Assembly (NCBI GenBank): GCA_020161855.1
Contig: JAIUNJ010000002.1
Location: 124,001 to 188,000 of the forward strand
Direction of reading: 5' to 3'
Length of the DNA stretch: 64,000 bases
From: Pseudomonadota bacterium
Lineage (GTDB): Bacteria > Pseudomonadota > Alphaproteobacteria > Rhizobiales > Aestuariivirgaceae
The position numbers and the translations under genes were made by a program. Below are positions 1-14,024 of this stretch, one piece after another (the first letter of the stretch is position 1; every line of letters begins with the position of its first letter). The notes under the pieces were generated by a model that worked only from the letters and a program-made list of their open reading frames with translations, was not told where the DNA came from and made no database searches.

Positions 1-1118
1 TCAAGGTCCACGACATCGGCCTCAGGCTGCATCGCAACGCCAAGGGCCAAGCCGGCTGGGAAGTGATGGTGGGTGGTGGCCAGGGCCGCACGCCGATGAT
101 CGCCGTGACGGTGCGTGAGCATCTGCCGGAGAACGAGCTGGTGCCCTATCTCGAAGCGATCATGCGCGTCTACAATCTCTATGGACGCCGGGACAACAAG
201 TACAAGGCGCGCATCAAGATCCTCGTGCACGAGATCGGCGCCGAGAAATTCCGTTCGGAGGTCGAGGCCGAATATGCCCGGCATCCGCACCAGACGACGG
301 AAGTTGAGGAGCGGGAGCTGGCGCGCATCGCCAAGTACTTCGCGCCACCGCGCTTTGAGAAACTGTCGCGCTTCGTTCCGCAATTCGAGGAAGCAAAGCT
401 GAAGGACAAGGACTTCGGCCGCTGGGTGAAGAACAACACCGCAGCTCATCACGTTGATGGCTACACAATCGTGAACATCTCGCTCAAGGCCACCGGAGAG
501 ATTCCGGGCGATGCCACCGGCGAGCAGATGCGTGTGATGGCCGACCTGGCCGAGCACTATTCGTTCGACGAGCTCCGCGTCTCCCATGCCCAGAACATCG
601 TTCTGCCGCATGTGAAACTGTCCGATGTTCACGCCGTCTGGCTGAAGCTCAAGGCGCACAACCTGGCAGAGGCCAATTATGGACTGGTGGGCGACATCAT
701 CGCCTGCCCCGGCATGGACTATTGCTCTCTTGCCACCGCGCGTTCGATTCCGATTTCGCAGGCAATCAGCCGGAAATTCGCGGATGCGCGCAAGCAGGAA
801 GAGATCGGCGCCATCAAGATCAACATTTCAGGCTGCATCAACGCCTGTGGCCATCACCATGTGGGCCATATCGGCATTCTCGGCCTCGACAAAAAGGGCG
901 AAGAATTCTTCCAGATTACGCTGGGTGGTTCTTCCTCCGAAAATGCCTCGATCGGCACCATTCTCGGCCCCGGCTTCGCCGGCCATGAGGTACCCGATGC
1001 CATCGAGAAGATTGTCGACACCTATATCAAGCTCAGGTCGCCCGGCGAGGAGTTTCTCTCCACCTATCGCCGCATTGGTCCCCAGCCCTTCAAGGAAGCT
1101 CTCTATGCCGCTGCTTAA
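1..1118 (+). CDS. cysI: Sulfite/nitrite reductase hemoprotein (partial, 5' end missing)
   Basis: The C-terminal 371 residues of a siroheme/[4Fe-4S] sulfite reductase beta subunit are present; the frame is open from base 3 and the start lies outside the window. In this family six electrons reduce sulfite to sulfide in the cytoplasm. The cluster/siroheme cysteines are visible as CPGMDYC (C-x5-C) and, downstream, CINAC (C-x3-C) followed by GHHHVG. About 170-200 N-terminal residues are missing relative to the usual length near 550. The last 14 bases overlap the next gene, and the order cysI-DUF934-cysH is the usual alphaproteobacterial assimilatory sulfate reduction block, which favours sulfite over nitrite as substrate. 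Confidence 0.92.
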   Translation, partial: KVHDIGLRLHRNAKGQAGWEVMVGGGQGRTPMIAVTVREHLPENELVPYLEAIMRVYNLYGRRDNKYKARIKILVHEIGAEKFRSEVEAEYARHPHQTTEVEERELARIAKYFAPPRFEKLSRFVPQFEEAKLKDKDFGRWVKNNTAAHHVDGYTIVNISLKATGEIPGDATGEQMRVMADLAEHYSFDELRVSHAQNIVLPHVKLSDVHAVWLKLKAHNLAEANYGLVGDIIACPGMDYCSLATARSIPISQAISRKFADARKQEEIGAIKINISGCINACGHHHVGHIGILGLDKKGEEFFQITLGGSSSENASIGTILGPGFAGHEVPDAIEKIVDTYIKLRSPGEEFLSTYRRIGPQPFKEALYAAA

Positions 1119-1635
1119 GCAAAATGCCTTTGTGGCTGATCAATGGTCGCATCTGGCCGACGAAGATGCGCTGCCCGACAGCGCGGCCATCACCGTTTCA
1201 CTGGCCCGCCTGCAGAAGGAATGGGACACGCTTGCCAAGCATCCCGGCCAGTTCGGTGTGCGCCTGCCGAACACGGTGCGGGAGGCCGAGCTTGCGCCAT
1301 TCCTGCCGCGGCTGGCGCTTGTGATCGTGACCTTCCCGGCCTTTAACGACGGCCGCTCCTATTCGATTGCGCGGCAGCTGCGCCTGGAAGGCTATCAGGG
1401 TGAAATTCGTGCAGCGGGCAATGTGCTGCCTGATCAGCTGCAGTTCATGCGCCAGGTCGGCATCGACAGCTTTGACGTCAGCGACCGCTTCCCGCTCGAC
1501 AGCTGGCTCAAGGCCTCGCGCCAGATGTCGCTGGCCTATCAGCGTGGGCTGTACCGGCCGGTCGGTGAACGCGAAGTCTGGTCGGAGCGGCACCGCGGTT
1601 TCGATGCCTGGGAGGAACAGCCACATGCTGGCTGA
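1105..1635 (+). CDS. DUF934 family protein of the cys operon
   Basis: A 176-residue protein of the DUF934 family, which is routinely found between cysI and cysH in alpha- and betaproteobacteria and is thought to support sulfite reduction; its biochemical role is not established. It carries the conserved central stretch VTFPAFNDGRSYSIARQLR and ends in an acidic/aromatic tail. The ATG at 1105 lies inside the cysI end (14 bp overlap) and the stop overlaps the cysH start, so translation of all three genes is probably coupled. No signal peptide or membrane segment is seen. A longer reading of the same frame upstream is only the cysI shadow. Confidence 0.88.
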   Translation: MPLLKQNAFVADQWSHLADEDALPDSAAITVSLARLQKEWDTLAKHPGQFGVRLPNTVREAELAPFLPRLALVIVTFPAFNDGRSYSIARQLRLEGYQGEIRAAGNVLPDQLQFMRQVGIDSFDVSDRFPLDSWLKASRQMSLAYQRGLYRPVGEREVWSERHRGFDAWEEQPHAG

Positions 1636-2368
1636 TGCCCACGGTGCCATTCAGGCCAACGCAGCGATTGAACGCTATGCGGGCATTGAAGGCCGTAACC
1701 TGATCAAGTCCGTACTCAAGGACTACCCGGGACGTGTCGCCCTGCTCTCGTCCTTTGGAGCGGAGTCGTCGGTGCTGCTGCACATGGCGTCTGAAGTTGA
1801 CCCGCATGTGCCGGTGATCTTCCTCGACACCCTGAAACTCTTTCCCGAGACGATTGCCTATCGCGACAAGCTGGTCAGCGAGCTGGGCCTCACCAATCTG
1901 CTCATCGCCAAGCCGGACGAGGCCGATCTGGCGCAGTTTGATCCACAGGGCGATCTCCACGGCAGCAATACCGATTTCTGCTGCTATGTCCGCAAGACCG
2001 TTCCGATGGACGAGGTGCTCAAGGATTTCGATGTGATCATTTCAGGCCGAAAGCGCTTCCATGGCTCGGCCCGCAGCGATCTCCAGTTCGTCAACCTGCA
2101 GGATGGCAAACTCAAGATTGAGCCGCTGGCCGGCTTCTCCGCACTCGACCTGCAGACCTACATGCAGCAGCACCATCTGCCGTCCCATCCCCTGAAGCTT
2201 GCTGGCTACCGTTCCATCGGATGCGTGCCCTGCACGGCGGTTGGCGGCAACGATGAGGATCCCCGTGCCGGACGCTGGCAGGGCACGAACAAGACCGAAT
2301 GCGGCATTCACTTCTCCGCCAATGGACAGGTCATCCGGACCGTGACACGGCAAGCCGCCCTGACCTAG
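1625..2368 (+). CDS. cysH: Phosphoadenylyl/adenylyl-sulfate reductase, Fe-S (APS) type
   Basis: A 247-residue PAPS-reductase-family enzyme that reduces activated sulfate to sulfite with thioredoxin. The nucleotide-binding SSFGAESSV segment lies at about 42-50. Cysteine pairs at 119-120 (CC) and 200/203 (GCVPC) are the [4Fe-4S] ligands of the APS-specific subfamily that E. coli CysH lacks, and the C-terminal redox motif ECGIH has Cys226. The enzyme therefore most likely uses APS directly. The start is chosen at the ATG at 1625, preceded by GGAGGAAC, overlapping the DUF934 gene by 11 bp. It is the last gene of the cys block and supplies the sulfite used by the upstream reductase. Confidence 0.93.
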   Translation: MLADAHGAIQANAAIERYAGIEGRNLIKSVLKDYPGRVALLSSFGAESSVLLHMASEVDPHVPVIFLDTLKLFPETIAYRDKLVSELGLTNLLIAKPDEADLAQFDPQGDLHGSNTDFCCYVRKTVPMDEVLKDFDVIISGRKRFHGSARSDLQFVNLQDGKLKIEPLAGFSALDLQTYMQQHHLPSHPLKLAGYRSIGCVPCTAVGGNDEDPRAGRWQGTNKTECGIHFSANGQVIRTVTRQAALT

Positions 2369-2504
2369 GCTTCGCCCCTAATAGACCGGTCACTTAAACT
2401 TGGCGACGGCCCCCACGGTCGGCGGCCTGCTCGGCATCGGCGCCTATCGCCTGCTCTTTGCCTGAACCCTTGCGGCTCTCCGGGCCGGCAGGCAAACTGC
2501 GGCC

Positions 2505-3290
2505 ATGCGTATTGCAACCTGGAACGTCAACTCGATCAAGGCCCATCTGGAGGCGGTCACGACCTGGCTGAAGGAGGCGCAGCCCGACGTCGTCTGCCTG
2601 CAGGAGATCAAATGTGAGAACGCAGGCTTTCCGAGTTTCGAGATGGAGGCGCTCGGCTATGCCTGTGCGATCCATGGCCAGAAGACCTATAATGGCGTTG
2701 CCATCCTCTCGCGGCTGCCGCTTGAGGATGTGCAGCGGGGCCTGCCCGGCGATGCATCCGATGAGCAGTCCCGTTTCATCGTCGCCACTGTCATCGACGG
2801 CGCGCATGCCGTGCGCGTCGCCTCACTCTATCTGCCGAATGGCAATCCGGCACCCGGCCCCAAATATGACTACAAGCTCGCCTGGATGGACCGTCTGAGG
2901 GCCTTCGCCTCGCAGGCGCTCAAGCAGGAAGAGGCGCTGGTTCTCGCGGGTGACTACAATGTCATTCCCGAGGCGCGCGACGCGAAGAACCCGCAGCTCT
3001 GGAAAGATGACGCACTGTTCCTGCCACCAACCCATGCCAGATTCTCCGAACTGACGTCGCTGGGCCTTGTCGAGGCCTTCCGCTCACTGCATCCGCTGAC
3101 GGAAGGCGCCTACAGCTTCTGGGACTATCAGGCCGGCGCCTGGCAGAAGAACAACGGCATCCGCATCGACCATCACCTCCTGTCGCCTCAGGCAGCGGAC
3201 CAGTTGGTATCGGTCGACATTCACAAGCACGTGCGCGCCTGGGAGAAGCCCTCGGACCACGTTCCCGTGGTCATCGAATTGCGCGCCTGA
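2505..3290 (+). CDS. xthA: Exodeoxyribonuclease III
   Basis: A 261-residue exonuclease III/AP endonuclease of base excision repair: it cleaves abasic sites and has 3'-5' exonuclease activity on duplex DNA. All hallmark residues are visible: Asn7 in WNVNS, metal-binding Glu34 in LQEIK, GDYNV with Asp150/Asn152, and the catalytic SDHVP with Asp251/His252. The length is normal for the family (about 260). It starts 136 bp after cysH, so it may have its own promoter. It ends tail-to-tail with the amine oxidase gene; the two stop codons lie within a short CCTGATCAGG palindrome and there is no obvious intrinsic terminator. Confidence 0.95.
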   Translation: MRIATWNVNSIKAHLEAVTTWLKEAQPDVVCLQEIKCENAGFPSFEMEALGYACAIHGQKTYNGVAILSRLPLEDVQRGLPGDASDEQSRFIVATVIDGAHAVRVASLYLPNGNPAPGPKYDYKLAWMDRLRAFASQALKQEEALVLAGDYNVIPEARDAKNPQLWKDDALFLPPTHARFSELTSLGLVEAFRSLHPLTEGAYSFWDYQAGAWQKNNGIRIDHHLLSPQAADQLVSVDIHKHVRAWEKPSDHVPVVIELRA

Positions 3291-5165
3291 TCAGGTGCAG
3301 CAGTGGGCGGGCTTGGCCGCCGGAACATCCAGGCCCGGATTCTCGTCAAAGAAGCCGACCGGCATCCAGTGGAAGTTTGCATAGACACAAGGTTGCACTG
3401 GCCAATCCTCGGGCCGCGGCAAATGGTGGTAGTTGAGCGTATACCAGACCACGAGGTTCTCCCCTTCGAGGTTCCGGTTCTTGGCCGCATAGGCCGGAAG
3501 CCCGTCGCCGCCCTTGTGCTGGTTGGGGAAAAGACCAGCAGCGTAAAGCTCCTCGGGCGCAAACTGCGTCGCCCAGAAGTGGTTGTACATGAAGCCTGCC
3601 CGCTTCCCCACCGGCGAATCCGGCGGAAGGAAAGGCAGCGCGTTCACGCCCGGCACGAGCTTGTAGCCCACGGGCTGGCCCAGACTGTTGGGCTTCGCGG
3701 TGTTGACCACCTTCCAATAAGCCTGCGTTGCAAGGTCGATCCTGCCCTGCGCCTCGCTTTCGGAGGCGAGCTTCCGCTCACTCACATCGATGGCGTTCCC
3801 ATGCGGGTTGTCGGGACCATAGGGTCTTCCGGCGAAGGACACCTCGCGCAGCGCGTTGCGCTCGCCATCCACGGTCATGTCAAAGCGGAAGGAGAAGACG
3901 TGCTGGTGAACATGGGCATTGATGCCAGAGGCCACCGCTGCACCATGCTTCGGCTCGGAGCCCACTGGTATGGCCGTCGGCAAGGGAATGCCGGTCGCCT
4001 TCACCTCTACGCCGATGGTGCCGTCCTGATAGAAGTACCAGAAGAAGCCATAGACATAGTTGCCAATGGTGCAGATCGAGGAGATCACAAACCGCCGGGA
4101 ACGCTTCACCGTCACGTCGCGCGTCAGCCAGTTTGAGTATTTCCAGAGGATGCCGAAATCCTCCTCGTGCATGCAGACGGCATTCTTGATGAGAACTGGC
4201 TTGCCATTCCAGTCGTGGCGCCAGGCGTCAAAATAGTGAATGTGTCCCAGGCAGTCGCAGCCCAACGTCAGTGAATCCGTGAGTTGGCCAATACCATACT
4301 CGCCCGTGTCAAAAGCGTTGCGGCGGTAGTTGCCGCCACCCGGTTCGCCATAGGGCACCACCATCTCGGACAGCGAGGCGCGATGCATGATGGGCCTGAC
4401 ACGCCCGCCATCCTCATAGCCGATCTCATGCAGGATCAGCCCGTCGCGCACATGGAAGCCGACACGAATGCGCCACTTCTGCCACTTCACGAGGTGGCCC
4501 TCGACTGCGAAGCTCGCCCCTCCGGGCTGCGTGATCTCCAGCGCCTTTACATCTTCACGAGGCTTTGCCGTCGTGATCGGCGTGCATTCGGGCGGCAATG
4601 GTACCACGCCAAAGTCGTCGATGCGGATCACCCGGCGGCGGCGCAGATCGATGACGGGATGCAGATTGGCGATCGGGCGCGCATAGGGGTTGTCGCCGTT
4701 GGCATTGCGGTGGAAGCAGTGGCCATAGGCAATGCGCTCGCCCTCCTCGGCCTTCACACCGAAATTTCCGGCAGCCCAAGGCTCAATACTCACGGCATCC
4801 ATATCAGTGATGCCGCGCCGGGCGCAGGCCTCCACAAAGCGCGGGTCCTGCTTCGCCATCTCGCCACAGAGCACGAATTCATCGGTCACGATGCGGGCCT
4901 GCATGCCCGCGGCGTGGTGCCAATCGATAAGGGCATTGTTGGCAAGGTCGGCAATGCCGAACCACGTTTCACCGGAGGCTGGATCGTAACAGCAGACAAA
5001 AGCCTGCCGGCGGCTCTTGCCCGCGCCCAGTTCCGCCTTTGACGGCTCATGTAGCGCTATGGTTTCGAACCAGGCTTCCGGGCTTAGGCCACCCTTGCTC
5101 CGCACCAACTCGGCTGCCGCAGCTATTTCGACGGCGTTCAGTGGATCAAGGGGATGGGAGGTCAT
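3291..5165 (-). CDS. Copper-containing primary amine oxidase
   Basis: A 624-residue type II (Cu/TPQ) amine oxidase that oxidatively deaminates a primary amine to aldehyde, H2O2 and NH3. The catalytic-base Asp286 lies in FDTGEYGIG. The TPQ precursor is Tyr370 in TIGNYVYGF. Copper ligands are His420/His422 (HQH) plus a histidine of NYHHLPRPEDW (580/581). The residue after the TPQ tyrosine is Val, not the usual Asp/Glu. No signal peptide is evident, so the enzyme is probably cytoplasmic. The ATG at 5165 was chosen because it sits 4 bp after the agmatinase stop; an upstream start at 5198 would overlap that gene. It is the last gene of the polyamine operon and likely oxidises putrescine, a related diamine or another amine. 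Confidence 0.93.
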   Translation of the reverse strand: MTSHPLDPLNAVEIAAAAELVRSKGGLSPEAWFETIALHEPSKAELGAGKSRRQAFVCCYDPASGETWFGIADLANNALIDWHHAAGMQARIVTDEFVLCGEMAKQDPRFVEACARRGITDMDAVSIEPWAAGNFGVKAEEGERIAYGHCFHRNANGDNPYARPIANLHPVIDLRRRRVIRIDDFGVVPLPPECTPITTAKPREDVKALEITQPGGASFAVEGHLVKWQKWRIRVGFHVRDGLILHEIGYEDGGRVRPIMHRASLSEMVVPYGEPGGGNYRRNAFDTGEYGIGQLTDSLTLGCDCLGHIHYFDAWRHDWNGKPVLIKNAVCMHEEDFGILWKYSNWLTRDVTVKRSRRFVISSICTIGNYVYGFFWYFYQDGTIGVEVKATGIPLPTAIPVGSEPKHGAAVASGINAHVHQHVFSFRFDMTVDGERNALREVSFAGRPYGPDNPHGNAIDVSERKLASESEAQGRIDLATQAYWKVVNTAKPNSLGQPVGYKLVPGVNALPFLPPDSPVGKRAGFMYNHFWATQFAPEELYAAGLFPNQHKGGDGLPAYAAKNRNLEGENLVVWYTLNYHHLPRPEDWPVQPCVYANFHWMPVGFFDENPGLDVPAAKPAHCCT

Positions 5166-5169
5166 GCCG

Positions 5170-6165
5170 TCATTCCGGCATTGCTTGCGCACGCGCACCG
5201 CGCTGCCAGGCCCTGAGGCAGAGATATTCCATGATCAGCGAGGATGCGGCCGAAGCGGTCACCTCGGAATGATCGTAAGGCGGCGACACCTCGACCATGT
5301 CCATGCCGACGAAGTTGATACCCGTCAGCTTGCGGATCACCGATGCCGCCTGATGATAGGTAAGTCCACCCGGAATGGGTGTTCCCGTACCGGGGGCCGC
5401 AGAAGGATCGAGGCAGTCGATATCGAAGGTAAGATAGGCCTTCGACGCACCAACCTTCTCCGAAATGATGCTGGCAAGTTGCGCCGCGGTCGAGTCGTGA
5501 ACCTCATCGGCATAGATGATCCGGAAGCCCATGGTCGTCTCGCCAACAAATGTCGTGCGGATGCCGATCTGCACGGACTTGCGCGGATCGATGAGCCCTT
5601 CCCTTACGGCATAGCCAAACATGGTGCCGTGATCGATACGCCCGCCATTGTCGACCTCAACATCGCGATGGGCATCGAAATGCACCAGAGCCAGCGGCCC
5701 GTGCTTCTTCGCATGAGCCTTGAGCAGCGGATAGGAAATGTAGTGATCGCCGCCGAGTGTGATCATCTCCGCATCCGACGATATGATCTCGGTCGCATGA
5801 CGTTCGAGTGCTTCGGGGAAATCTTCTTTCCGGCCCCAGTCAAAGAAGCAGTCGCCGTAATCGATCACACCCAGCGTCTCGAACGGATCGAAGTTCCATG
5901 GCCAGAACGGCCCCCAGGCGTTCTCTGCAGAAGCCCGGCGGATTGCTTCCGGGCCCATGCGGGTGCCTGAACGATGCGAAACGGCCTGATCGAACGGAAC
6001 GCCCGTCACGGCAAAATCCACGCCTTTCAGCTCGCGGGTATATTTGCGCCGCATGAAGGAGAGCGCACCTGCGTAGGTCGGCTCCCAGTTCGTGCCCTTG
6101 ATGCTGCTGCGCCGAAACGCATCATCTCCCGGCACCCGGCCGAGCTTGTCCATTTCCAATGCCAT
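5170..6165 (-). CDS. speB: Agmatinase / ureohydrolase family
   Basis: A 331-residue arginase-superfamily hydrolase. The binuclear Mn ligands are all present: His141 (GGDH), Asp164/His166/Asp168 (FDAHRD) and Asp248/Asp250 (TFDIDCLDP). Family members hydrolyse agmatine, guanidinobutyrate or related guanidino compounds to urea plus the amine; agmatine to putrescine best fits the surrounding polyamine transport and oxidation genes, but guanidinobutyrase cannot be excluded. The start is taken at the ATG at 6165, 5 bp after the stop of the ATP-binding gene; a more distal start would overlap it. Spacing on both sides is 4-5 bp, indicating one transcript. Confidence 0.88.
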   Translation of the reverse strand: MALEMDKLGRVPGDDAFRRSSIKGTNWEPTYAGALSFMRRKYTRELKGVDFAVTGVPFDQAVSHRSGTRMGPEAIRRASAENAWGPFWPWNFDPFETLGVIDYGDCFFDWGRKEDFPEALERHATEIISSDAEMITLGGDHYISYPLLKAHAKKHGPLALVHFDAHRDVEVDNGGRIDHGTMFGYAVREGLIDPRKSVQIGIRTTFVGETTMGFRIIYADEVHDSTAAQLASIISEKVGASKAYLTFDIDCLDPSAAPGTGTPIPGGLTYHQAASVIRKLTGINFVGMDMVEVSPPYDHSEVTASAASSLIMEYLCLRAWQRGARAQAMPE

Positions 6166-6170
6166 AAAGC

Positions 6171-7259
6171 CTACTCCGTCAGGATCAGGGAATCCGTACC
6201 CTGCCAGCTGACCCAAATCTTGTCGCCACGCTTGGCGGCCGAACCGATGCTGCGCTTCTCGTTCTGTACGTTCACGGACACGGATGTGCCATCGGCCATT
6301 TCAGCCACGACCTCGCTCCAGTCGCCATAATAGGCCACGTCACGTACTGTTGCCTGCGCCTTCACGATGCCTTCTACCTTGGGGGCCGCATCCGAAAGCT
6401 TGAGCTTCTCGGGCCGCACGGCAATCGTCACATCCTTGCCGCAGGCCTTGTCGCTGACCAGCTTGAGCTTACCGAGGCCCTTCACATTAGCGATCACATC
6501 CGAGCCCTTCTGGCTGACCACGCTGGCCTCGAACAGGTTCACCTTGCCGATGAAGTCGGCGACGAATTTGTTGGCCGGATGCTCATAAAGCTCCGCCGGC
6601 GTGGCGATCTGCCTGATCTTTCCCTTCTCCATGACGGCGATGCGGCTGGCCATGGACAATGCCTCGTCCTGATCATGCGTGACGATGATGAAGGTGATGC
6701 CGACCGTCTGCTGCAGCCGCGTCAGTTCCATACGCATGTCGTCACGCAACTTCGCATCAAGGGCTGAGAGTGGCTCATCCAGCAGCAACACCTTGGGCCG
6801 CTTGACGAGTGCGCGCGCCAGGGCAACGCGCTGGCGCTGGCCACCCGACATCTGATCCGGCTTGCGGTCCGCGAGATGGGAGAGCTTCACCATCTCGAGG
6901 CCTTCGGCTACGCGCCGCTTGATCTCATCCGAGGGCACGCCCGTCACCTTGAGCCCGTAACCCACATTCTGCGCTACGGTCATGTGCGGGAACACGGCAT
7001 AGGACTGGAACACCATGTTGGTGGGACGCTTGTTCGGTGGCGTCAGGGCCATGTCCTCGCCGCCGATATAGATGTGGCCTTCCGTGGGTGTATCGAGCCC
7101 GGAAATCATGCGGAGCAATGTCGTCTTCCCGCAACCCGACGGCCCGAGCAGCGCAAAGAACTCGTTCTGCTCGATGTCGACGGATACGTCATCGACGGCC
7201 ACAACGCCGCCAGGATAGCGGCGGGAAACATTGCGGATGGAAACAATGGCGTCTGGCAT
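6171..7259 (-). CDS. potG: Polyamine ABC transporter ATP-binding protein
   Basis: A 362-residue ABC ATPase of the PotA/PotG type that powers polyamine import. Walker A GPSGCGKT (39-46), Q-loop Gln85, signature MSGGQ (137-141), Walker B VLLLDE (about 157-162), the D-loop and the H-loop His195 are visible. A C-terminal regulatory OB-type (TOBE) domain follows from about residue 280. The ATG at 7259 begins 2 bp beyond the end of the permease gene; a TTG two codons upstream is possible. It pairs with the two permeases and PotF-like binding protein of the same operon. Confidence 0.93.
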   Translation of the reverse strand: MPDAIVSIRNVSRRYPGGVVAVDDVSVDIEQNEFFALLGPSGCGKTTLLRMISGLDTPTEGHIYIGGEDMALTPPNKRPTNMVFQSYAVFPHMTVAQNVGYGLKVTGVPSDEIKRRVAEGLEMVKLSHLADRKPDQMSGGQRQRVALARALVKRPKVLLLDEPLSALDAKLRDDMRMELTRLQQTVGITFIIVTHDQDEALSMASRIAVMEKGKIRQIATPAELYEHPANKFVADFIGKVNLFEASVVSQKGSDVIANVKGLGKLKLVSDKACGKDVTIAVRPEKLKLSDAAPKVEGIVKAQATVRDVAYYGDWSEVVAEMADGTSVSVNVQNEKRSIGSAAKRGDKIWVSWQGTDSLILTE

Positions 7260-7261
7260 GA

Positions 7262-8107
7262 TCAATGACCCGATTTTTCTGGCGCCTGAAGCTTCATGGC
7301 GATGACTGTTGCAACGATGGTGACGACAATGAGCACGGTGGAGGCCGCATTGATTTCCGGTGACACGCCCCTGCGCACGAGAGAGTAGACCTTGACCGGG
7401 AACGTCACAGTTTCCGGCCCTGACGTGAAGAAGGTGATGACGAAGTCATCAAGGGACAGCGTGAAGGCAAGGAGCGCCCCCGCAATGATACCCGGCATCA
7501 TGAAAGGAATGAGAACGTTCCTGAACGTTTGCCATTCACTGGCTCCCAGATCCTTGGAGGCCTCTTCCAGCTGCCGGTTGAAGCCCACGAGGCGCGAGCG
7601 CACGACCACGGCCACGAAAGGAAAGCAGAAGGCCACATGCGCGATGATGATGTTGGCGAGATTGAAGGGCCAGACGAGCCCAACGACAGCATTCATCATG
7701 CCGCTTTCGATGAAAAACAACAGCAGCGCCACGCCCATGCAGATTTCCGGGATCACGATCGGCAGCGCCATGAAACCTTCGAAGGCGCCCTTGAACGGGA
7801 ACTTGAAACGCCAGAGCAGGATGGCGACCATCGTGCCGATGATCGTCGCAATCACCGTGGCGATCAGGGCAATCACAAGCGAATTGACCAAGGCCTCGAT
7901 CAGCGAGTCATTGGTCATGGCCTTCACGTAGTTGTCGAAGGTGAAGCCGCGCCAGACGATACCGCGTTTGTCCGTGTTGAAGGAGAAGGCGATCAGCGTG
8001 ATGATCGGCATGTAGAGAATGAAGAAGATGCCGATGAACAGCGCCCGCAGCCAGGTCCTGTTACCATAATCGAGAGGGCCTGCGCCCGGTTTCAATTGCC
8101 CAGCCAT
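7262..8107 (-). CDS. potI: Polyamine ABC transporter permease (PotI/PotC type)
   Basis: A 281-residue inner-membrane permease with about six hydrophobic helices. The EAA loop that contacts the ATPase is visible as EASKDLGASEWQTFRNV. It forms the transport channel together with the adjacent PotH-type permease. The ATG overlaps the stop of the PotH gene by one base (TGATG), so the two subunits are translationally coupled. Length and topology match PotC/PotI. Substrate specificity (putrescine versus spermidine) cannot be read from the permease alone. Confidence 0.93.
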   Translation of the reverse strand: MAGQLKPGAGPLDYGNRTWLRALFIGIFFILYMPIITLIAFSFNTDKRGIVWRGFTFDNYVKAMTNDSLIEALVNSLVIALIATVIATIIGTMVAILLWRFKFPFKGAFEGFMALPIVIPEICMGVALLLFFIESGMMNAVVGLVWPFNLANIIIAHVAFCFPFVAVVVRSRLVGFNRQLEEASKDLGASEWQTFRNVLIPFMMPGIIAGALLAFTLSLDDFVITFFTSGPETVTFPVKVYSLVRRGVSPEINAASTVLIVVTIVATVIAMKLQAPEKSGH

Positions 8108-8979
8108 CAGACGCCGACCCCTTTGCTGAAGCGCGCGAACAGCGCACGCAAGGCCAGGGCCCCGAATGTCGCATACATGAGAAGGAATGAAATGGCGGCG
8201 CCAAAGGGCCAGTCATTGGCCGCCTTGAACTGGCGTTCGATGACGTTGCCGATCATCACCGCATTGGCTCCGCCGAGAAGATCAGGCGTGAGGAACGAAC
8301 CCAGGCAGGGGATGAAAACAAGAATGATGCCGGTGATGATGCCGGGCATGGTCAGTGGCACGGTCACCTTCAGGAAGGTCTGGAACTGCGAGGCACCGAG
8401 ATCAAGGCTGGCTTCCAGGAAAGAACGGTCCAGACGCTCGATCGTGGCATAGAGTGGCAGCACCATGAACGGCATGTAGACGTAGACAAGCCCGAAGATG
8501 ACCGCGAAGTTATTGTAAAGCATGTCGTAGGGGCCGAGCCCCACCCAGCCGAGCGCCAGATTCACATAGCCCTGCGTACGGAAGACGGCGATCAGGGCGT
8601 AGGTGCGGATCAGCAGGTTGATCCAGAACGGCAGGATCACCAGCAGCAGAAGCAGCGGCTTCCACTTGGCCGGCGCAAAGCAGATACCGAAAGCAATGGG
8701 ATAAGCCGTCAGCAGGCAGACCAGCGTTGCCAGCGCGGAAACCCAGATCGATTTCCACATGATGGTCAGATAGAGCGGCTCGAATGCCCTGATATAGTTG
8801 GAGACACCGGTCAGATAATCATAGTCGGTGATCGAGACCTGCCCGTCGACGACGGCCTTGTCGCTGAACGACATAACGAACAGGAAGCCGAGCGGCACGA
8901 CAAAGAACAGCAGTAGCCAGAAGAAGCCGGGCGTTCCTAGTGTCCAGAATACGCGCCTGTTGCCTTTCCAATCATCCAA
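8107..8979 (-). CDS. potH: Polyamine ABC transporter permease (PotH/PotB type)
   Basis: A 290-residue inner-membrane permease with about six helices and the EAA loop EASLDLGASQFQTFLKV. It is the partner of the PotI-type permease just downstream. The only in-frame start near the family's usual N terminus is a TTG at 8979, giving MDDWKGNRR; a nearby ATG at 8975 is out of frame. A weak GGGGA element precedes it. The gene follows the kinase/lyase fusion after about 75 bp, the largest gap between transporter genes, leaving room for an internal ribosome site. Confidence 0.9.
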   Translation of the reverse strand: MDDWKGNRRVFWTLGTPGFFWLLLFFVVPLGFLFVMSFSDKAVVDGQVSITDYDYLTGVSNYIRAFEPLYLTIMWKSIWVSALATLVCLLTAYPIAFGICFAPAKWKPLLLLLVILPFWINLLIRTYALIAVFRTQGYVNLALGWVGLGPYDMLYNNFAVIFGLVYVYMPFMVLPLYATIERLDRSFLEASLDLGASQFQTFLKVTVPLTMPGIITGIILVFIPCLGSFLTPDLLGGANAVMIGNVIERQFKAANDWPFGAAISFLLMYATFGALALRALFARFSKGVGV

Positions 8980-9053
8980 GATGCCGTGTCCCCGTTCCGA
9001 CGTTTCCCAATGTTTTGCGCAAGTCTAACCCCATTTCCCCGGCAGGGGCAAGC

Positions 9054-11354
9054 TCAGCGCAAGGCCTTGAGCGCGTCATCCAGAGCGGAGATGGCAATAT
9101 CCGCCTCGGTGCGGCCGAAGATGAGCGGGGGTCTCACCTTGAGCACATTGCCCAGCTTGCCATCGCTTCCGACCAGCACACCGAGATCCTTGAGGGCATT
9201 GATGATCTTCCGCGTCTCTGCCGCCGCCGGCTCCAGCGTTGCCCGGCTGCGAACGAGTTCCACCCCGATTGCAAGCCCCGAGCCACGGACATCCCCGATG
9301 AGTTCGTGCCGGTCCATCAGGCTCCTGAAGCCTTCGCGGAGGTATTTCCCGGTTTCCAGTGAGTTGCGCACGAGTTCTTCCCGGGCAATCACGTCGAGCA
9401 CGGCCATGCCTGCCGCGCAGGCCGCGTTGCCGCCGCCGAAGGTCGAGAAGAACGGCCCTGTCTCCGCAATGAATTTCTCGAGGATTTCACTCCGCGTGAT
9501 GATCACACCTACCGGATAGCCATTCCCGGCGGGCTTGCCGATGGTCACAAAGTCAGGGACAACGCCATGGTGCTGATGGCCCCACATGTGGGTTCCCATA
9601 CGGCCAAAACCCGATTGAACCTCATCCGCCACAAATAGCCCGCCAGCGGCGCGCATGCGCCCGGCGATCGCCTGCACATAGCCCGGTGGTGCATCGATGA
9701 TGCCATTGGTCATGAAGGCGCTGTCGAAAACACTGACCGCGACGCCAAAGCCAGCAGAAGCCAGTTCGGCAATGGCCGTGTCGGCAAAGGCCGCATAGCG
9801 CTCAGCTATATCATTCGTGCCCTTGCGATGGGGGCCGCGATAGGTGTCCGGCGCTTCCAGCTGACGCACCTGCGGCTTTGAGAACTTCCCCGCGGGGTAG
9901 TTCGACGGTGACATGGCATCGCTGATATCGGTGACGCCGTGATAGGCAAAATCCATCACCAGCATGCCCGTCTGTCCGGTCCAGCAGCGGGCCATGCGAT
10001 ACGCGACGTCGTTGGCTTCGCTTCCGGAGTTGACGAAGATCACGGTATCAAGCGACGGATCAAGCGTGGCCTTGAGCCGCTCGGCGTAGGCGATGGACTC
10101 ATCCGTGAGGTAGCGCGTGTTGGTGTTGAGGACGCGGAGCCTGCGGGCCACCACCTCGCTCACATGCGGATTGCAATGCCCGACGTGCGGCACGTTGTTA
10201 TAACAATCGAGATAGCGCCGCCCGTCAGAGGCGGTGAGCCAGACGCCCTCTCCCTTCACCATGTGAAGCGGCGTGTCGTAGAAGAGCAGCGGCTTCGGCC
10301 CCATGGCAGCCTCGCGGCGCGCGATCATACTGTCATTCGCCGCTGAAGGACTCGGTTCGAAATTGGCGGCGTAGCGGATGGCCTCACTGAGCTTCCCGGC
10401 ATCAAGAGCCGCCAGAATATCGAGGCTGATGCTGTCGAGGGCGGCAATCTGTGGGGTTACGGGTGCTCCATCCTTCCGCCGGATGGCGGTGATGAGCGCG
10501 GTCAGGGCCAGCCGGGAACGCATGAGCGGCAGGATCAGATCAACCTCCTGCTCTTCCAGCGGCACATGGCGCACGAAACCCGAGGTGATGGAGGTCATAA
10601 TGCGGGCGAAGTCCCGGCCCGGCAGAAGACAATCGGCCAGAACATTCGCAAGCTCCATGACACGCGGACCATGCACCATGTCGCCGAAGTCGATCACCCC
10701 TGACACATGCCCTTCTTCCGACAGCAGTACATTGAAGGGATGCGCATCGGCATGCATGATCTGGGCCGGAAGTCTGGCTGCCGCCGGCTCAACAAGCGCC
10801 CTGCTCTCGGCGAGCACCGCGCCGACAAGAGCCCGGCGACCGGGCGCGATGAGATCAAGATGGCCCGAGAGTGCGTGGGCCTGAACGGTGTTCCACACAA
10901 GCGCCCGCCCGGCAGGTGCGGGATGAACGAAGCCGCGGAGCGCCTTGTTCAACCGGCCAATGGTTTCCCCCAGTTCACAATACTGCGCTTCCGCAAGATC
11001 GCGGTCGCCTGCCACGTCCCCCTTCAGCCATGAGAGCACGGCAACGGGAAGAACAGAGCCGCCGCTGGAGAAGCTGTGCAGGAGGCCGCCCTGCAGCGTT
11101 CGGTGGACGCGCGGTACGCCAAGGCCGGGGTCAACGGCTGCGATATGCTCCAGTGCCAGCAGCTGGCCCTCAACGATGGAGAGGCCCTCCGCCGGATTGC
11201 AGATTTTGACAACAAACTCGCCTTCGGCAGAGGAAAGCCGGTGGTTCTGGTCGCGCTCGCCATCCAGCGCCCGGTAGGTGCCGTCGAGGCCGTAACCCGA
11301 CTTCACCGCCGCGCGGATACTGTTCAATGGCAAAACCGGTGCCTGCACCAACAT
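9054..11354 (-). CDS. Fused APH-type kinase and class III aminotransferase-fold phospho-lyase
   Basis: A 766-residue two-domain protein. Residues 1-330 form an aminoglycoside-phosphotransferase/choline-kinase-like kinase with Lys50 (FVVKI), the Brenner motif His201-x-Asp203...Asn208 and IDFGD with Asp222. Residues 345-766 form a class III PLP enzyme with NSGSEAND, ADEVQSGFGR (Asp577) and the PLP lysine Lys607 in IGKPAGNGYPVG. Kinase and PLP parts related to hydroxylysine kinase and AGXT2L1/AGXT2L2 phospho-lyases are known: the pair phosphorylates an amino alcohol and then eliminates phosphate and ammonia to give an aldehyde. The substrate here is unknown; the operon suggests a hydroxylated di- or polyamine or another amino alcohol. 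The start at 11354 is supported by GGGAGG. Confidence 0.87.
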   Translation of the reverse strand: MLVQAPVLPLNSIRAAVKSGYGLDGTYRALDGERDQNHRLSSAEGEFVVKICNPAEGLSIVEGQLLALEHIAAVDPGLGVPRVHRTLQGGLLHSFSSGGSVLPVAVLSWLKGDVAGDRDLAEAQYCELGETIGRLNKALRGFVHPAPAGRALVWNTVQAHALSGHLDLIAPGRRALVGAVLAESRALVEPAAARLPAQIMHADAHPFNVLLSEEGHVSGVIDFGDMVHGPRVMELANVLADCLLPGRDFARIMTSITSGFVRHVPLEEQEVDLILPLMRSRLALTALITAIRRKDGAPVTPQIAALDSISLDILAALDAGKLSEAIRYAANFEPSPSAANDSMIARREAAMGPKPLLFYDTPLHMVKGEGVWLTASDGRRYLDCYNNVPHVGHCNPHVSEVVARRLRVLNTNTRYLTDESIAYAERLKATLDPSLDTVIFVNSGSEANDVAYRMARCWTGQTGMLVMDFAYHGVTDISDAMSPSNYPAGKFSKPQVRQLEAPDTYRGPHRKGTNDIAERYAAFADTAIAELASAGFGVAVSVFDSAFMTNGIIDAPPGYVQAIAGRMRAAGGLFVADEVQSGFGRMGTHMWGHQHHGVVPDFVTIGKPAGNGYPVGVIITRSEILEKFIAETGPFFSTFGGGNAACAAGMAVLDVIAREELVRNSLETGKYLREGFRSLMDRHELIGDVRGSGLAIGVELVRSRATLEPAAAETRKIINALKDLGVLVGSDGKLGNVLKVRPPLIFGRTEADIAISALDDALKALR

Positions 11355-11373
11355 GCCTACCTCCCACAAAGAA

Positions 11374-11396
11374 GGCGGGAGCCACCGGCCCCCGCC
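11374..11396 (-). terminator. Intercistronic stem-loop after potF
   Basis: GGCGGG (11374-11379) pairs with CCCGCC (11391-11396), and an inner GCC/GGC adds to the stem. On the transcribed minus strand the hairpin is followed by TTCTTT. It lies between the potF stop and the ribosome site of the kinase/lyase gene, so it probably attenuates read-through or protects the potF 3' end, keeping the binding protein more abundant than downstream products. Confidence 0.55.
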
Positions 11397-11422
11397 CCAT
11401 ATTCAAAAGCCCGCGTGCCTGA

Positions 11423-12505
11423 TCAGGCGGCCTGAATGGCGGTCCAGATTTCGTCGCGGACGCGGAGCGCTTCCTCGCCGAGATAGACATTGCCTTCGCA
11501 CTTCGCGATCAGATCCGCAGGCGGATAGATGGCGAGGTTGTTGACGTATTCTTCCGGCATCAGCTTCTTGGCCGCGAGGTTCGGCGTGGCGTATTGCACC
11601 GTCTCGGCGATGTGCTTGCCTGCCTCCGGATCGAGCACGAAGTTCAGGAACTTGTGAGCGTTCTCGGGGTGCGGCGCGCCGTTTGGAATGCACCAGGCTT
11701 CTTCCCAGATGTTGGCGCCTTCCTTCGGGATCACATAGGTGAGGTCGTCGTCTTCCTTCATCACCTGGGCGATATCGCCGTTCCATTCCTGGCAGGCGGC
11801 CACTTCGCCGGAGGCCAGGAGATCCTGTCCGTTGTCGTCAGCGAAGACCTTGATGTTCTTCTTCTGCGCGATCAGCAGGTCCTTGACCTTGTTGAGTTCG
11901 TCGGCGTTGGTCGAATTGAACGAGTAGCCGAGATACTTGAGGGCACAGCCGAGAACGTTCTGCGCGTCACCGAGCAGCGCCAGCTTGCCGGCAAGCTCAT
12001 CAGACTCGAAGAGGATTTTCCAGCTGTCGATCACGCCGTTTGGCGCCGCCGACTTGCGGTAACCGATGCCGATCGTTCCCCACATGTAAGGAACGCCGAA
12101 CTTGCGGCCCGGATCGAAGGTCGGATTGGCGAAGGCCGGATCGACATTGGCAAAGTTCGGAATCTTGCTGTGGTCCAGCGGCATCAGCATGTTGGCTTTC
12201 ATCATGCGCTCTTGGAAGTCCGAAGCGATGATGACGGCGTCATAGCCGGGGTTGCCCGCCTTCAGCTTGGCGAACATCTCGTCCATGTCGGCAAAGAGAT
12301 CCATGCGCGTTGCAATGCCGGATGCCTTGGTGAAGTCGTCGAGCGTGTGCTCGCCGATGTAGGTGTCGTAGTTATAGAGGCTGATCTGCTTTTCCTCTTC
12401 GGAAAAGGCATTGCGCGAGGCAAAAGTCAGCCCGGCGATCACGGCGCCGGTGCCCTGGAGCAGCGCACGGCGGCTCGGGCGGAATTTCGGAACGTAGTTG
12501 GTCAT
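11423..12505 (-). CDS. potF: Polyamine-binding periplasmic protein (PotF/PotD type), Tat signal
   Basis: A 360-residue extracellular solute-binding protein of the spermidine/putrescine family. The N terminus has a twin-arginine-type signal (SRRALLQGTG, then a hydrophobic stretch) before mature sequence starting near SEEEKQISLYNYDTYIG. It captures the polyamine and delivers it to PotH/PotI. The ATG at 12505 has a strong GGAGGAAAG ribosome site; longer readings upstream lack support. Stem-loops flank the gene on both sides. A Tat rather than Sec signal is less common for this family but recurs in alphaproteobacteria. Confidence 0.92.
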   Translation of the reverse strand: MTNYVPKFRPSRRALLQGTGAVIAGLTFASRNAFSEEEKQISLYNYDTYIGEHTLDDFTKASGIATRMDLFADMDEMFAKLKAGNPGYDAVIIASDFQERMMKANMLMPLDHSKIPNFANVDPAFANPTFDPGRKFGVPYMWGTIGIGYRKSAAPNGVIDSWKILFESDELAGKLALLGDAQNVLGCALKYLGYSFNSTNADELNKVKDLLIAQKKNIKVFADDNGQDLLASGEVAACQEWNGDIAQVMKEDDDLTYVIPKEGANIWEEAWCIPNGAPHPENAHKFLNFVLDPEAGKHIAETVQYATPNLAAKKLMPEEYVNNLAIYPPADLIAKCEGNVYLGEEALRVRDEIWTAIQAA

Positions 12506-12565
12506 GGTCTTTCCTCCGGTTTTTGATGTGGCCATTGCCATCGTCTGAGCGATATCAAGCAATTA

Positions 12566-12596
12566 AGGGGCCATTTGCGGCGATGCAATGGCCCCT
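12566..12596 (-). terminator. Perfect 10-bp stem-loop upstream of potF
   Basis: AGGGGCCATT (12566-12575) and AATGGCCCCT (12587-12596) form a perfect 10-bp inverted repeat with an 11-nt loop, starting about 9 bp beyond the aminotransferase stop. On the minus strand it is followed by TTAATTGCTTG, only moderately U-rich. It could be a leaky terminator or an RNA-processing barrier between the aminotransferase and potF. Confidence 0.55.
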
Positions 12597-12604
12597 ATCG
12601 TCAT

Positions 12605-13990
12605 TCAGGCCAGCTCCGCCTTCACATCGGCATGTGTCTTGTCGAGCGCTAGCCGCGCAAGCCTGCCGATTTCATCGATCTCCTTCTTGGAAACGCAGAA
12701 CGGAGGCGCAAGCACCATCGTATCCCAGCAGGCCCGCATGATGAGGCCATTGTTGAAGCAATGGTCGCGGCAGATGCCGCCCACGCGGCCCGGTTCATGG
12801 AAGCGCTCACGCGTCTTTTTGTTCTTGCAGAGCTCAATCGCACCGATCAGGCCCACCGACCTTGCCTCGCCGACGATGGGGTGGTCCGCCAAAGCTTTGA
12901 GCATGTTGCTGAAATATGGAGCGAGCTCGGCCACCCGCTCGACCAGCTTTTCATCCTGCAGGATCTGCAGGTTCTTGAGCGCCACGGCCGCGGCCACCGG
13001 ATGACCGGCATAGGTCATGCCGTGGTAGAACTCGCCGCCCTTGGCGAAGAAGTCCTTGGTGAGGTGGTCGGAGAAGGCAACCGCACCAATCGGCAGGTAA
13101 CCGGACGAGAGGCCCTTGGCCATGGCGACGATATCCGGCTCAAACCCCATGGTCTCGAAACCGAACCACTTTCCGGTGCGGCCGAACCCGCAGATCACCT
13201 CGTCGGCGACGATGAGAATGCCGTACTTGCGGCAGATCTTCTGCACTTCCGGCCAGTAGGTCGACGGTGGAATGAGCACACCAGCCGCCCCCTGGATTGG
13301 CTCACCATAGAACGCCGCGACATTCTCCGGCCCGACCTCGAGAATCTTCTTCTCAAGATCGGCAGCAGCCTCAAGGCCGAATTCCTCGGGGCTCTTGTCG
13401 CCGCCGAAATCGAACCAGTGCGGCTGCTGCACGTGATGGAAGCCCGGCAGCGCATCACCGCCCTGCTCATGCATCGCGGTCATGCCGCCGAGATTTGCCG
13501 CTACCCAGGTGGAGCCGTGATAGCCGCGCCTGCGCCCGATGATGTGCTGGCGATAGGGCTTGCCCATCAGCTTCCAGTAGTGGCGGATGAAGCGCACGAT
13601 GGTGTCGTTGGATTCGCTGCCGGAGTTCGTGAAGAAGACATGCTTGAAGCGCTTCGGCAGAACCGACGAGATCTTCTCGGCCAGTTCCGTGGCCGGCACC
13701 GTCGTCGTCTTGAAGAAGGTGTTGTAGTAGGGCAGATCGAGCATCTGCTTGTAGGCGACTTCGGCCAGTTCCTTGCGGCCATAGCCGATATTCACGCACC
13801 AGAGCCCGGACATGCCGTCCAGAATCTTGTTGCCCTTGCCGTCCCAGAGATAGACGCCGTCGCCCTGCGTGATGACGCGCGGGCCGCCCGCCTCGTGAAA
13901 TGTCTTGTGATCGGTGAAGGGATGGAAATGGTGGGCGATATCCGCCTTCACGATTTCCTCGATATTGATGTTCTTCTGATGGATGGTCAT
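12605..13990 (-). CDS. spuC: Putrescine (diamine) aminotransferase, SpuC-like class III
   Basis: A 461-residue class III PLP aminotransferase. SpuC-type hallmarks include ILDGMSGLWCVNIGYGR near 56-72, NSGSESND (about 122-129), VADEVICGFGRTG with Asp263 and the PLP lysine Lys292 in AMAKGLSSGYLPIG. Family members transfer an amino group from putrescine, or a related omega-amine, to pyruvate, giving 4-aminobutanal. It is the first gene of the polyamine operon. The ATG at 13990 is preceded by GGAG; a GTG two codons upstream is an alternative. Assignment to putrescine rests on the transporter context plus the WCVNIGYG motif; related taurine or beta-alanine transaminases cannot be excluded. Confidence 0.87.
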   Translation of the reverse strand: MTIHQKNINIEEIVKADIAHHFHPFTDHKTFHEAGGPRVITQGDGVYLWDGKGNKILDGMSGLWCVNIGYGRKELAEVAYKQMLDLPYYNTFFKTTTVPATELAEKISSVLPKRFKHVFFTNSGSESNDTIVRFIRHYWKLMGKPYRQHIIGRRRGYHGSTWVAANLGGMTAMHEQGGDALPGFHHVQQPHWFDFGGDKSPEEFGLEAAADLEKKILEVGPENVAAFYGEPIQGAAGVLIPPSTYWPEVQKICRKYGILIVADEVICGFGRTGKWFGFETMGFEPDIVAMAKGLSSGYLPIGAVAFSDHLTKDFFAKGGEFYHGMTYAGHPVAAAVALKNLQILQDEKLVERVAELAPYFSNMLKALADHPIVGEARSVGLIGAIELCKNKKTRERFHEPGRVGGICRDHCFNNGLIMRACWDTMVLAPPFCVSKKEIDEIGRLARLALDKTHADVKAELA

Positions 13991-14024
13991 TGCCACACTC
14001 CGTGCCTGAAACGAAAACGAGCCA

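What the first reader, a model, noticed from the sequence alone, without database searches (positions are those of the whole stretch)
9054..11354. Kinase/phospho-lyase fusion inside a polyamine uptake-catabolism operon
A single 766-aa protein joins an APH-type kinase (His201-x-Asp203, Asp222) to a class III PLP enzyme (Lys607) related to ethanolamine-phosphate and phosphohydroxylysine phospho-lyases. It lies inside an eight-gene operon with PotF/H/I/G, a putrescine-type aminotransferase, an agmatinase and a copper amine oxidase. Known family chemistry phosphorylates a hydroxyl next to an amine, then eliminates phosphate and ammonia to leave an aldehyde. Applied to 2-hydroxyputrescine this would give 4-aminobutanal, the product of the neighbouring aminotransferase; ethanolamine or hydroxylysine are alternatives. 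A route for hydroxylated polyamine degradation would be new to me.
Basis: partly seen in the sequence, partly recalled or inferred. Interest (0 to 1): 0.75.

Follow-up and report, generated by a model that had tools for sequence, protein, structure and literature searches.

The report
Amino-alcohol kinase-lyase in polyamine operon
A bacterial polyamine-uptake operon carries an optional extra gene for one protein that probably phosphorylates an amino alcohol and then splits it into an aldehyde, ammonia and phosphate, which might let the cell eat hydroxylated polyamines; the exact food molecule is still a guess.

Summary
Window 9054-11354, minus strand, encodes a 766-aa fusion of an APH-type kinase and a class III PLP enzyme, inside a tight eight-gene run (aminotransferase, potF, fusion, potH, potI, potG, agmatinase, copper amine oxidase). 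The C-terminal half is of the phospho-lyase kind: by profile, human ethanolamine-phosphate phospho-lyase and phospholyase A1RDF1 score 514 and 505 bits, the next solved protein 261. The fused form itself is widespread in bacteria and haloarchaea. In the window's genus it is an optional insert between potF and potH of an otherwise conserved polyamine operon (16 of 35 operons; several gains or losses; low dN/dS). Outside the genus most relatives examined are not beside Pot-type transporters; a few are. Conversion of a vicinal amino alcohol to an aldehyde is well supported by kinship, not shown. 2-Hydroxyputrescine is the best single substrate guess; ethanolamine is a live rival, since EutB was found in none of 37 genus genomes. 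Verdict: new variant of a known kind.

The parts
9054..11354 (-). 766-aa fusion: APH-type kinase (about residues 1-330) and class III PLP phospho-lyase (about 338-766)
12605..13996 (-). class III aminotransferase, NCBIfam PRK07480 over cut-off; first gene of the run. That this family is putrescine-type is recalled
11423..12562 (-). PotF/PotD-type substrate-binding protein with an altered ligand pocket
8107..8979 (-). PotH/PotB-type permease
   Evidence: relative at E <= 1e-70 in 35 of 37 genus genomes
7262..8107 (-). PotI/PotC-type permease
6171..7265 (-). PotG/PotA-type ATPase (TIGR01187 over cut-off)
5170..6216 (-). agmatinase-family ureohydrolase (PRK02190 and TIGR01230 over cut-off)
3291..5198 (-). 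copper amine oxidase (PRK11504 over cut-off); optional, found in 4 of 36 operon loci

Best explanation
The protein is a two-step amino-alcohol degrading enzyme. Its kinase half uses ATP to phosphorylate a hydroxyl next to a primary amine. Its PLP half forms an aldimine with that amine, eliminates phosphate, and releases ammonia and an aldehyde. In this genus it is an optional side branch of a polyamine uptake and breakdown operon: the Pot transporter brings in the substrate, and the aldehyde joins the pool made by the neighbouring aminotransferase or amine oxidase. The likeliest substrate class is a hydroxylated diamine or polyamine; 2-hydroxyputrescine giving 4-aminobutanal is the best single guess. 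Shown here: domains, catalytic residues, phospho-lyase kinship, operon position, gain or loss within the genus, low dN/dS. Inferred: both reactions, the order of steps, the substrate and the fate of the product.
For: Lyase half: 5g4i and 6tor lead the searches (385 and 350 bits against 200 for the next; with a profile 6tor 514 and 5g4i 505 against 261; Foldseek E of about 1e-40 to 1e-37 against about 1e-30). Residues N386-N387, R414-[YF]415, Q580 and G606-K607-P608 are shared with both solved phospho-lyases. The NN pair and GKP are in 0 of the 8 other class III proteins of the genome that I aligned (of 12 found); R-[YF] is in 1 and Q580 in 2 of the 8. The fusion sits between potF and potH in 16 genus genomes, also in three whose PotH is only 61-65% identical. 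In G214 the order is PotF-PotG-PotH-PotI, aldehyde dehydrogenase, fusion, all on one strand. In Rhizobium wuzhouense it is PotG-PotH-PotI-PotF-fusion, then an amidohydrolase and a molybdenum hydroxylase of the aldehyde/xanthine oxidase type. Three of four haloarchaeal plasmids looked at have Pot-type, glutamine-synthetase-like and aminotransferase genes near. PotF residue 115, at the ligand-contact position S87 of E. coli PotF, is Asp in 15 of 15 operons with the fusion and 6 of 17 without.
Against: Most relatives examined outside the genus are not beside polyamine genes. EutB was found in none of 37 genus genomes, so the fusion could instead supply ethanolamine breakdown. The Asp in PotF rests on about two origins. 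Two genomes (G219, G203) have it with no fusion found, and two (G212, G223) have the fusion elsewhere but an Asn. Columns of PotH, PotI and PotG associate more strongly with the fusion, and those of the aminotransferase and agmatinase about equally. Four genus genomes carry the fusion outside this operon. Window residue 642 is Gly where nearly all aligned relatives have Asn, of unknown effect.
Confidence: 0.5

Rival explanations
1. Ethanolamine kinase/phospho-lyase: the protein turns ethanolamine into acetaldehyde, ammonia and phosphate, and its place in the polyamine operon only reflects shared regulation by amines or nitrogen.
For: Human ETNPPL acts on phosphoethanolamine (entry name; established knowledge). 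EutB, the known bacterial ethanolamine lyase, was found in 0 of 37 genus genomes; the same search found it in 1 of 14 control genomes, E. coli.
Against: The conserved neighbour is a diamine-type binding protein and transporter, and the PotF pocket has acidic residues at both ends. In the tree ETNPPL groups with a different fusion clade, and one genus genome with the operon fusion (G135) also holds a 1020-aa kinase-linker-lyase of that other clade (L057).
Confidence: 0.25
2. 5-Hydroxylysine or another vicinal amino alcohol (isopropanolamine, 1,3-diamino-2-propanol, hydroxy-agmatine, hydroxy-cadaverine) is the true substrate; the chemistry is the same.
For: 5-Phosphohydroxylysine has the same H2N-CH2-CH(OP)- unit as phospho-2-hydroxyputrescine (established knowledge of PHYKPL). 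Relatives lie in very different neighbourhoods, so substrate range across the family probably varies.
Against: No amino-acid-type transporter or lysine pathway gene is in the operon. The ureohydrolase and aminotransferase families point to four-carbon guanidino and diamine compounds (inference).
Confidence: 0.2
3. A genomic passenger: an amino-alcohol enzyme that inserted by chance into an expressed operon and has no functional tie to polyamines.
For: 19 of 35 genus operons lack it; it has been gained or lost several times; one genome keeps only a remnant of its 3' end.
Against: Same position and strand in 16 genomes whose fusions differ at up to about half of their residues, low dN/dS, and separate Pot neighbourhoods in other lineages.
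Confidence: 0.05

Closest known systems
Human ethanolamine-phosphate phospho-lyase ETNPPL (6tor) and, by recall, its paralogue PHYKPL for 5-phosphohydroxylysine
   Same: Lyase half: best profile hit (514 bits), same fold (target-normalised TM 0.95), same NN, R-[YF] and GKP residues
   Different: The solved ETNPPL chain (499 aa) is too short to hold the kinase; in the tree ETNPPL lies in another fusion clade
Phospholyase A1RDF1 of Arthrobacter aurescens TC1 (5g4i)
   Same: 43-44% identity in the structural alignment, target-normalised TM 0.95
   Different: Solved chain of 446 aa without a kinase; in the tree it falls among lyases for which no kinase was found, on a long branch whose place is unsure
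NCBIfam PRK06148 and PRK06149 (models of 1015 and 972 positions)
   Same: Best NCBIfam matches, two matched stretches each
   Different: Window protein scores 710 and 562 bits against cut-offs of 1128 and 973, and lacks the middle stretch of about 240-250 residues seen in three long forms. That this stretch is an M23 peptidase domain is recalled, not tested
E. coli PotFGHI / PotABCD polyamine uptake and putrescine aminotransferase pathway
   Same: Transporter and aminotransferase families
   Different: No kinase/phospho-lyase is part of the known pathway (recalled). PotF contact residues W37, S38, D39, S85, S87, A182, E185, F276 and D278 are changed in the window protein (wild-type residues and their roles from PMC8666671 passages)
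PbfA, (R)-1-hydroxy-2-aminoethylphosphonate ammonia-lyase
   Same: Class III PLP enzyme that acts as a lyase (PMC8154272 passages)
   Different: Acts directly on a hydroxylated aminophosphonate, with no phosphorylation step (passages); NF049939 match is only 189 bits against a cut-off of 525

Membership tests
Class III PLP ammonia-phospholyases (ETNPPL/PHYKPL/A1RDF1 kind) | Closer to solved phospho-lyases than to any solved aminotransferase or racemase | tested here: met
Class III PLP ammonia-phospholyases (ETNPPL/PHYKPL/A1RDF1 kind) | PLP lysine and the NN / R-[YF] / GKP residues shared by both solved phospho-lyases (set chosen here by comparison, after seeing the alignment) | tested here: met
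   NN and GKP in 0 of the 8 other class III proteins aligned, R-[YF] in 1 of 8
Class III PLP ammonia-phospholyases (ETNPPL/PHYKPL/A1RDF1 kind) | Release of phosphate and ammonia from an O-phospho amino alcohol | not testable with these tools
   needs enzyme assay
APH-type small-molecule kinases | HxD...N and DFG-type catalytic motifs and an ATP-binding lysine (motif roles recalled) | tested here: met
   H201, D203, N208, D222, K50; Pfam PF01636 over cut-off. Against: the sequence search of the kinase half found only two weak ABC1-family hits, E about 0.01, and a kinase-only model failed
NCBIfam PRK06148/PRK06149 | Score over the curated cut-off and the middle stretch | tested here: not met
Pot-type polyamine uptake operon | Binding protein, two permeases and ATPase of the Pot families in one run | tested here: met
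   run seen in 35 of 37 genus genomes, some loci cut by contig ends
Pot-type polyamine uptake operon | PotF pocket with the contact residues of E. coli PotF | tested here: not met
   W37Y, S38D, D39T, S85A, S87D, A182D, E185N, F276W and D278E relative to E. coli PotF; W244 and D247 kept
2-Hydroxyputrescine catabolic enzyme | Activity on, or growth dependence for, 2-hydroxyputrescine | not testable with these tools
   no assay; nothing on such a route in the listings

The most novel reading that the evidence does not exclude
A dedicated route for degrading hydroxylated polyamines: PotF (with a distal-site Asp) takes up 2-hydroxyputrescine, the fusion phosphorylates it and eliminates phosphate and ammonia, and 4-aminobutanal enters the same path as putrescine. 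The gene comes and goes with the supply of 2-hydroxyputrescine, a polyamine reported from beta-proteobacteria.
Probability: 0.33. Interest if true: 0.75.

Novelty: new variant of a known kind. Interest (0 to 1): 0.5.

Why it matters
2-Hydroxyputrescine is a recognised polyamine of beta-proteobacteria (a passage and cited titles in PMC7857480), yet the listings I saw show no described route for its breakdown. If the reading is right, a single two-domain enzyme added to an ordinary polyamine operon opens that food source. It would also give a function to a large group of proteins that the plasmid records I opened name only 'aminotransferase' or 'phosphotransferase'.

Tried and rejected
Rejected as a chance open frame: conserved, low dN/dS, high-confidence model. 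Rejected as an aminotransferase: it has the phospho-lyase-type residues and sits with phospho-lyases. Rejected as a new architecture: kinase and lyase are fused in 67 of the 122 gene rows (64 short, 3 long with a middle stretch; recounted). About 22 of the 64 short rows are from the window's genus or its near copies.

Tried with little result: (1) A general test of Pot linkage. A full Pot system lies within 10 kb in 4 of 26 window-clade loci outside the genus, 0 of 22 ETNPPL-clade loci, 3 of 19 loci of the mostly two-gene group, and 3 of 38 loci where the script found no kinase. A PotF-like gene alone was found in 3, 0, 0 and 1 more. Only 16, 17, 18 and 32 of these have 5 kb of flank on both sides. 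The first two groups follow the tree, the last two partly the architecture. Left out before counting: the genus loci, L018, L055, L059, L060, L074, L109, L136, L138, L192 and L194. The 'no kinase' label misses some: L055 and L171 show a kinase nearby. The differences are too small to count as proof. (2) A Rieske oxygenase and two agmatinase-like genes near the fusion in L064 looked like a hydroxylation-plus-degradation set. But a creatininase over its cut-off is in the same run, and an acyl-CoA dehydrogenase on the other strand lies between, so I do not use it. (3) The kinase half against solved structures by sequence gave two weak ABC1-family hits. (4) A kinase-only structure without alignment had pLDDT 34.6 and was discarded. 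(5) Nine literature searches on the fusion, its chemistry or hydroxyputrescine showed no paper on this fusion in a polyamine operon. Several listings were capped (20 of 1,066; 10 of 32; 15 of 20; 10 of 13), and subscription papers are mostly not held. The 2012 paper on hydroxylysine kinase and phospho-lyases and the 2016 paper on putrescine hydroxylases were seen only as titles in reference lists.

Full report
What is there. The stretch 9054-11354 encodes, on the minus strand, a 766-residue protein. The start codon at 11354 has a GGGAGG site just upstream. Pfam finds an APH kinase domain at 32-241 and a class III aminotransferase-fold domain at 362-762, and no other family at E <= 0.001. K50, D203, N208, D222, D577 and K607 are invariant in 38 aligned fusions, with H201 nearly so. 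The eight genes from 3291 to 13996 all lie on the minus strand, at most about 75 bases apart by the coordinates. They are an aminotransferase (PRK07480 over cut-off), a PotF/PotD-type binding protein, the fusion, PotH- and PotI-type permeases, a PotG/PotA-type ATPase, an agmatinase-family enzyme and a copper amine oxidase. The window is part of genome G000 (92% complete), where one place matches both halves of the fusion.

What kind of enzyme. By sequence the lyase half is closest to two solved phospho-lyases, 5g4i (385 bits) and human ethanolamine-phosphate phospho-lyase 6tor (350 bits); the next solved protein scores 200. With a seven-member profile 6tor scores 514 and 5g4i 505, the next 261. 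A model of the whole protein on 38 homologues has mean pLDDT 91.8 and pTM 0.72, and Foldseek ranks the same two proteins first (E about 1e-40 and 1e-37, then about 1e-30). I aligned the lyase half with both solved phospho-lyases and with 8 of the 12 other class III proteins that one search found in this genome, the operon's own aminotransferase among them. N386-N387 and G606-K607-P608 are in both solved phospho-lyases and the fusion and in none of the eight; R414-[YF]415 is in one of the eight and Q580 in two. These residues were picked after seeing the alignment. The kinase half has the APH catalytic residues but only two weak solved hits by sequence, and a model of it alone failed. So the two-step chemistry is inferred from kinship, not shown.

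The fusion is a widespread form. A tree of 137 lyase-domain rows (quick method, many forks open) has one clade of 47 rows with the window protein and fusions from Alphaproteobacteria, Gammaproteobacteria, Actinomycetota and four haloarchaeal plasmids. Another clade (23 rows) holds fusions from Bacteroidota, Planctomycetota and others together with human ETNPPL and three roughly 1000-residue forms. A third (26 rows) is mostly two-gene kinase/lyase sets, and a fourth (36 rows) is nearly all lyases for which the script found no kinase, with 5g4i on a long branch. In one search, 67 of 122 rows are fused, 3 of these in the long form (recounted). The rows come from a capped list (the best 80 of 590). 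The window protein is far below the cut-offs of NCBIfam PRK06148 and PRK06149 and lacks their middle part. The architecture as such is therefore not novel.

The operon setting in the genus. Of 37 genomes of the window's genus, 35 have a PotH relative at E <= 1e-70, and in 20 the fusion was found, four of them only in part. In 16 of these 20 the fusion lies between potF and potH (in G216 the two parts lie at the ends of two contigs). This includes G204, G224 and G225, whose PotH is only 61-65% identical to the window's. In 19 genomes the operon is present without the fusion; four of those (G210, G212, G214, G223) carry the fusion elsewhere. On trees of PotF, PotH and the aminotransferase the presence of the fusion needs 5, 5 and 6 changes (at least 4, 5 and 4 forced by well-supported branches). 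G208 keeps a remnant of the last 42 or so residues in the potF-potH gap (E 5e-16), a recent loss; the best of the other 18 gaps reaches only E 0.003. Eight of nine pairs of fusion genes give dN/dS 0.12-0.22; the ninth was out of frame and dropped. So the gene is an optional but selected insert in a conserved polyamine operon. The copper amine oxidase is also optional (4 of 36 operon loci, 35 genomes).

Outside the genus. The link is much weaker. Ten loci from nine further alphaproteobacterial genomes (four of the genomes from one genus; threshold E <= 1e-135, 385 genomes searched) show no Pot system beside the fusion. Two of these contigs are too short to tell, and one locus has a ureohydrolase. 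Among 26 window-clade loci outside the genus, four have a full Pot system within 10 kb and three a PotF-like gene only (one of them a 21% match). The ETNPPL clade has 0 of 22, the mostly two-gene group 3 of 19, and loci with no kinase found 3 of 38 plus one with PotF only (which loci were left out is told under Tried and rejected). Some neighbourhoods are nevertheless telling. Rhizobium wuzhouense has PotG-PotH-PotI-PotF directly before the fusion, and an amidohydrolase and a molybdenum hydroxylase of the aldehyde/xanthine oxidase type after it. Genus member G214 has a second Pot system, an aldehyde dehydrogenase and the fusion on one strand. The haloarchaeal plasmids of Natronosalvus, Natribaculum and Natrinema carry Pot-type, glutamine-synthetase-like and aminotransferase genes nearby. 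That of Halalkalicoccus does not, though a deoxyhypusine synthase lies about 6 kb away. Other relatives lie beside genes with no evident polyamine tie, or beside other ABC transporters; the Bosea two-gene set has a histone-deacetylase-family gene and an ABC system next to it.

A hint in the binding protein. Compared with E. coli PotF, whose contact residues I took from passages of PMC8666671, the window PotF has W37Y, S38D, D39T, S85A, S87D, A182D, E185N, F276W and D278E, and keeps W244 and D247 (aligned through an engineered PotF). Among genus operons, the PotF column that best separates those with the fusion from those without is residue 115, the equivalent of contact residue S87: Asp in 15 of 15 against 6 of 17. 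Of those six, G208 has the fusion remnant, G210 and G214 have the fusion elsewhere, G201 is 66% complete, and G219 and G203 have no fusion found. Against the pattern, G212 and G223 have the fusion elsewhere but Asn here. On a tree without the N-terminal part, Asp needs three changes, with two separate Asp groups that both contain the fusion. This is suggestive only: columns of PotH, PotI and PotG associate more strongly and those of the aminotransferase and agmatinase about as strongly, so shared history can explain it.

How it most likely works. Import by the Pot system; phosphorylation of a hydroxyl next to a primary amine by the N-terminal half; PLP-dependent loss of phosphate and ammonia in the C-terminal half, which gives an aldehyde. 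With 2-hydroxyputrescine the product would be 4-aminobutanal, the product expected from a putrescine aminotransferase, and the genome has aldehyde dehydrogenases (14 matched places, some of them pieces of one gene). This fits the neighbourhood best, but the substrate is inference. Ethanolamine is the main rival: EutB was found in 0 of 37 genus genomes. Against it stand the diamine-type binding protein and the presence, in one genome with the operon fusion (G135), of a second, long-form kinase-lyase that groups with human ETNPPL (L057).

Literature. Nine full-text searches of an open-access library listed nothing on a kinase/phospho-lyase fusion in a polyamine operon or on breakdown of 2-hydroxyputrescine; several listings were capped. 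I read passages only, of PMC8154272, PMC10848231, PMC8666671, PMC7857480 and PMC11998418. Subscription papers are mostly not held, so a published description may exist.

Verdict. Observation confirmed; chemistry well supported by family; polyamine link real in the genus and not general outside it; substrate open. New variant of a known kind, interest 0.5.

Noticed in passing
L173 (G208), potF-potH gap: Remnant of the fusion's last 42 or so residues in an operon that has otherwise lost the gene: a recent deletion.
   Followed up: yes
window 11423-12562: The PotF pocket departs from canonical PotF/PotD at several contact positions across the genus (Asp at position 38 in every row, Thr or Ser at 39), so its ligand may not be plain putrescine even in operons without the fusion.
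   Followed up: partly
L174, L175, L176 potF-potH gap; L158: A strong G+C-rich inverted repeat right after potF, seen by eye in the printed gaps, perhaps to set the binding protein's expression apart from the permeases.
   Followed up: no
L167 (G214) 10-8986: A second Pot-type system, an aldehyde dehydrogenase and the fusion on one strand, while the core operon of the same genome lacks the fusion.
   Followed up: partly
L198 (Natronosalvus halobius plasmid): Archaeal fusion flanked by an agmatinase, aminotransferases, a glutamine-synthetase-family gene, a glutamine amidotransferase and PotD/PotF-type uptake genes: possibly a gamma-glutamyl polyamine route plus the fusion.
   Followed up: partly
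window 9054-11354, residue 642: Gly where nearly all aligned relatives have Asn, in a conserved glycine-rich stretch of the lyase half.
   Followed up: no
L097, L103, L105, L118, L121, L126 and others: Lyases with no kinase found directly follow another class III aminotransferase-fold gene in several rhizobia; a separate conserved pair of unknown role.
   Followed up: no
L064 4661-8494: Creatininase, Rieske oxygenase and two agmatinase-like genes in one run near a window-clade fusion.
   Followed up: partly
L156 (G223) 9426-10805: A TIR-domain gene lies near the fusion in a genome where the fusion is outside the operon.
   Followed up: no
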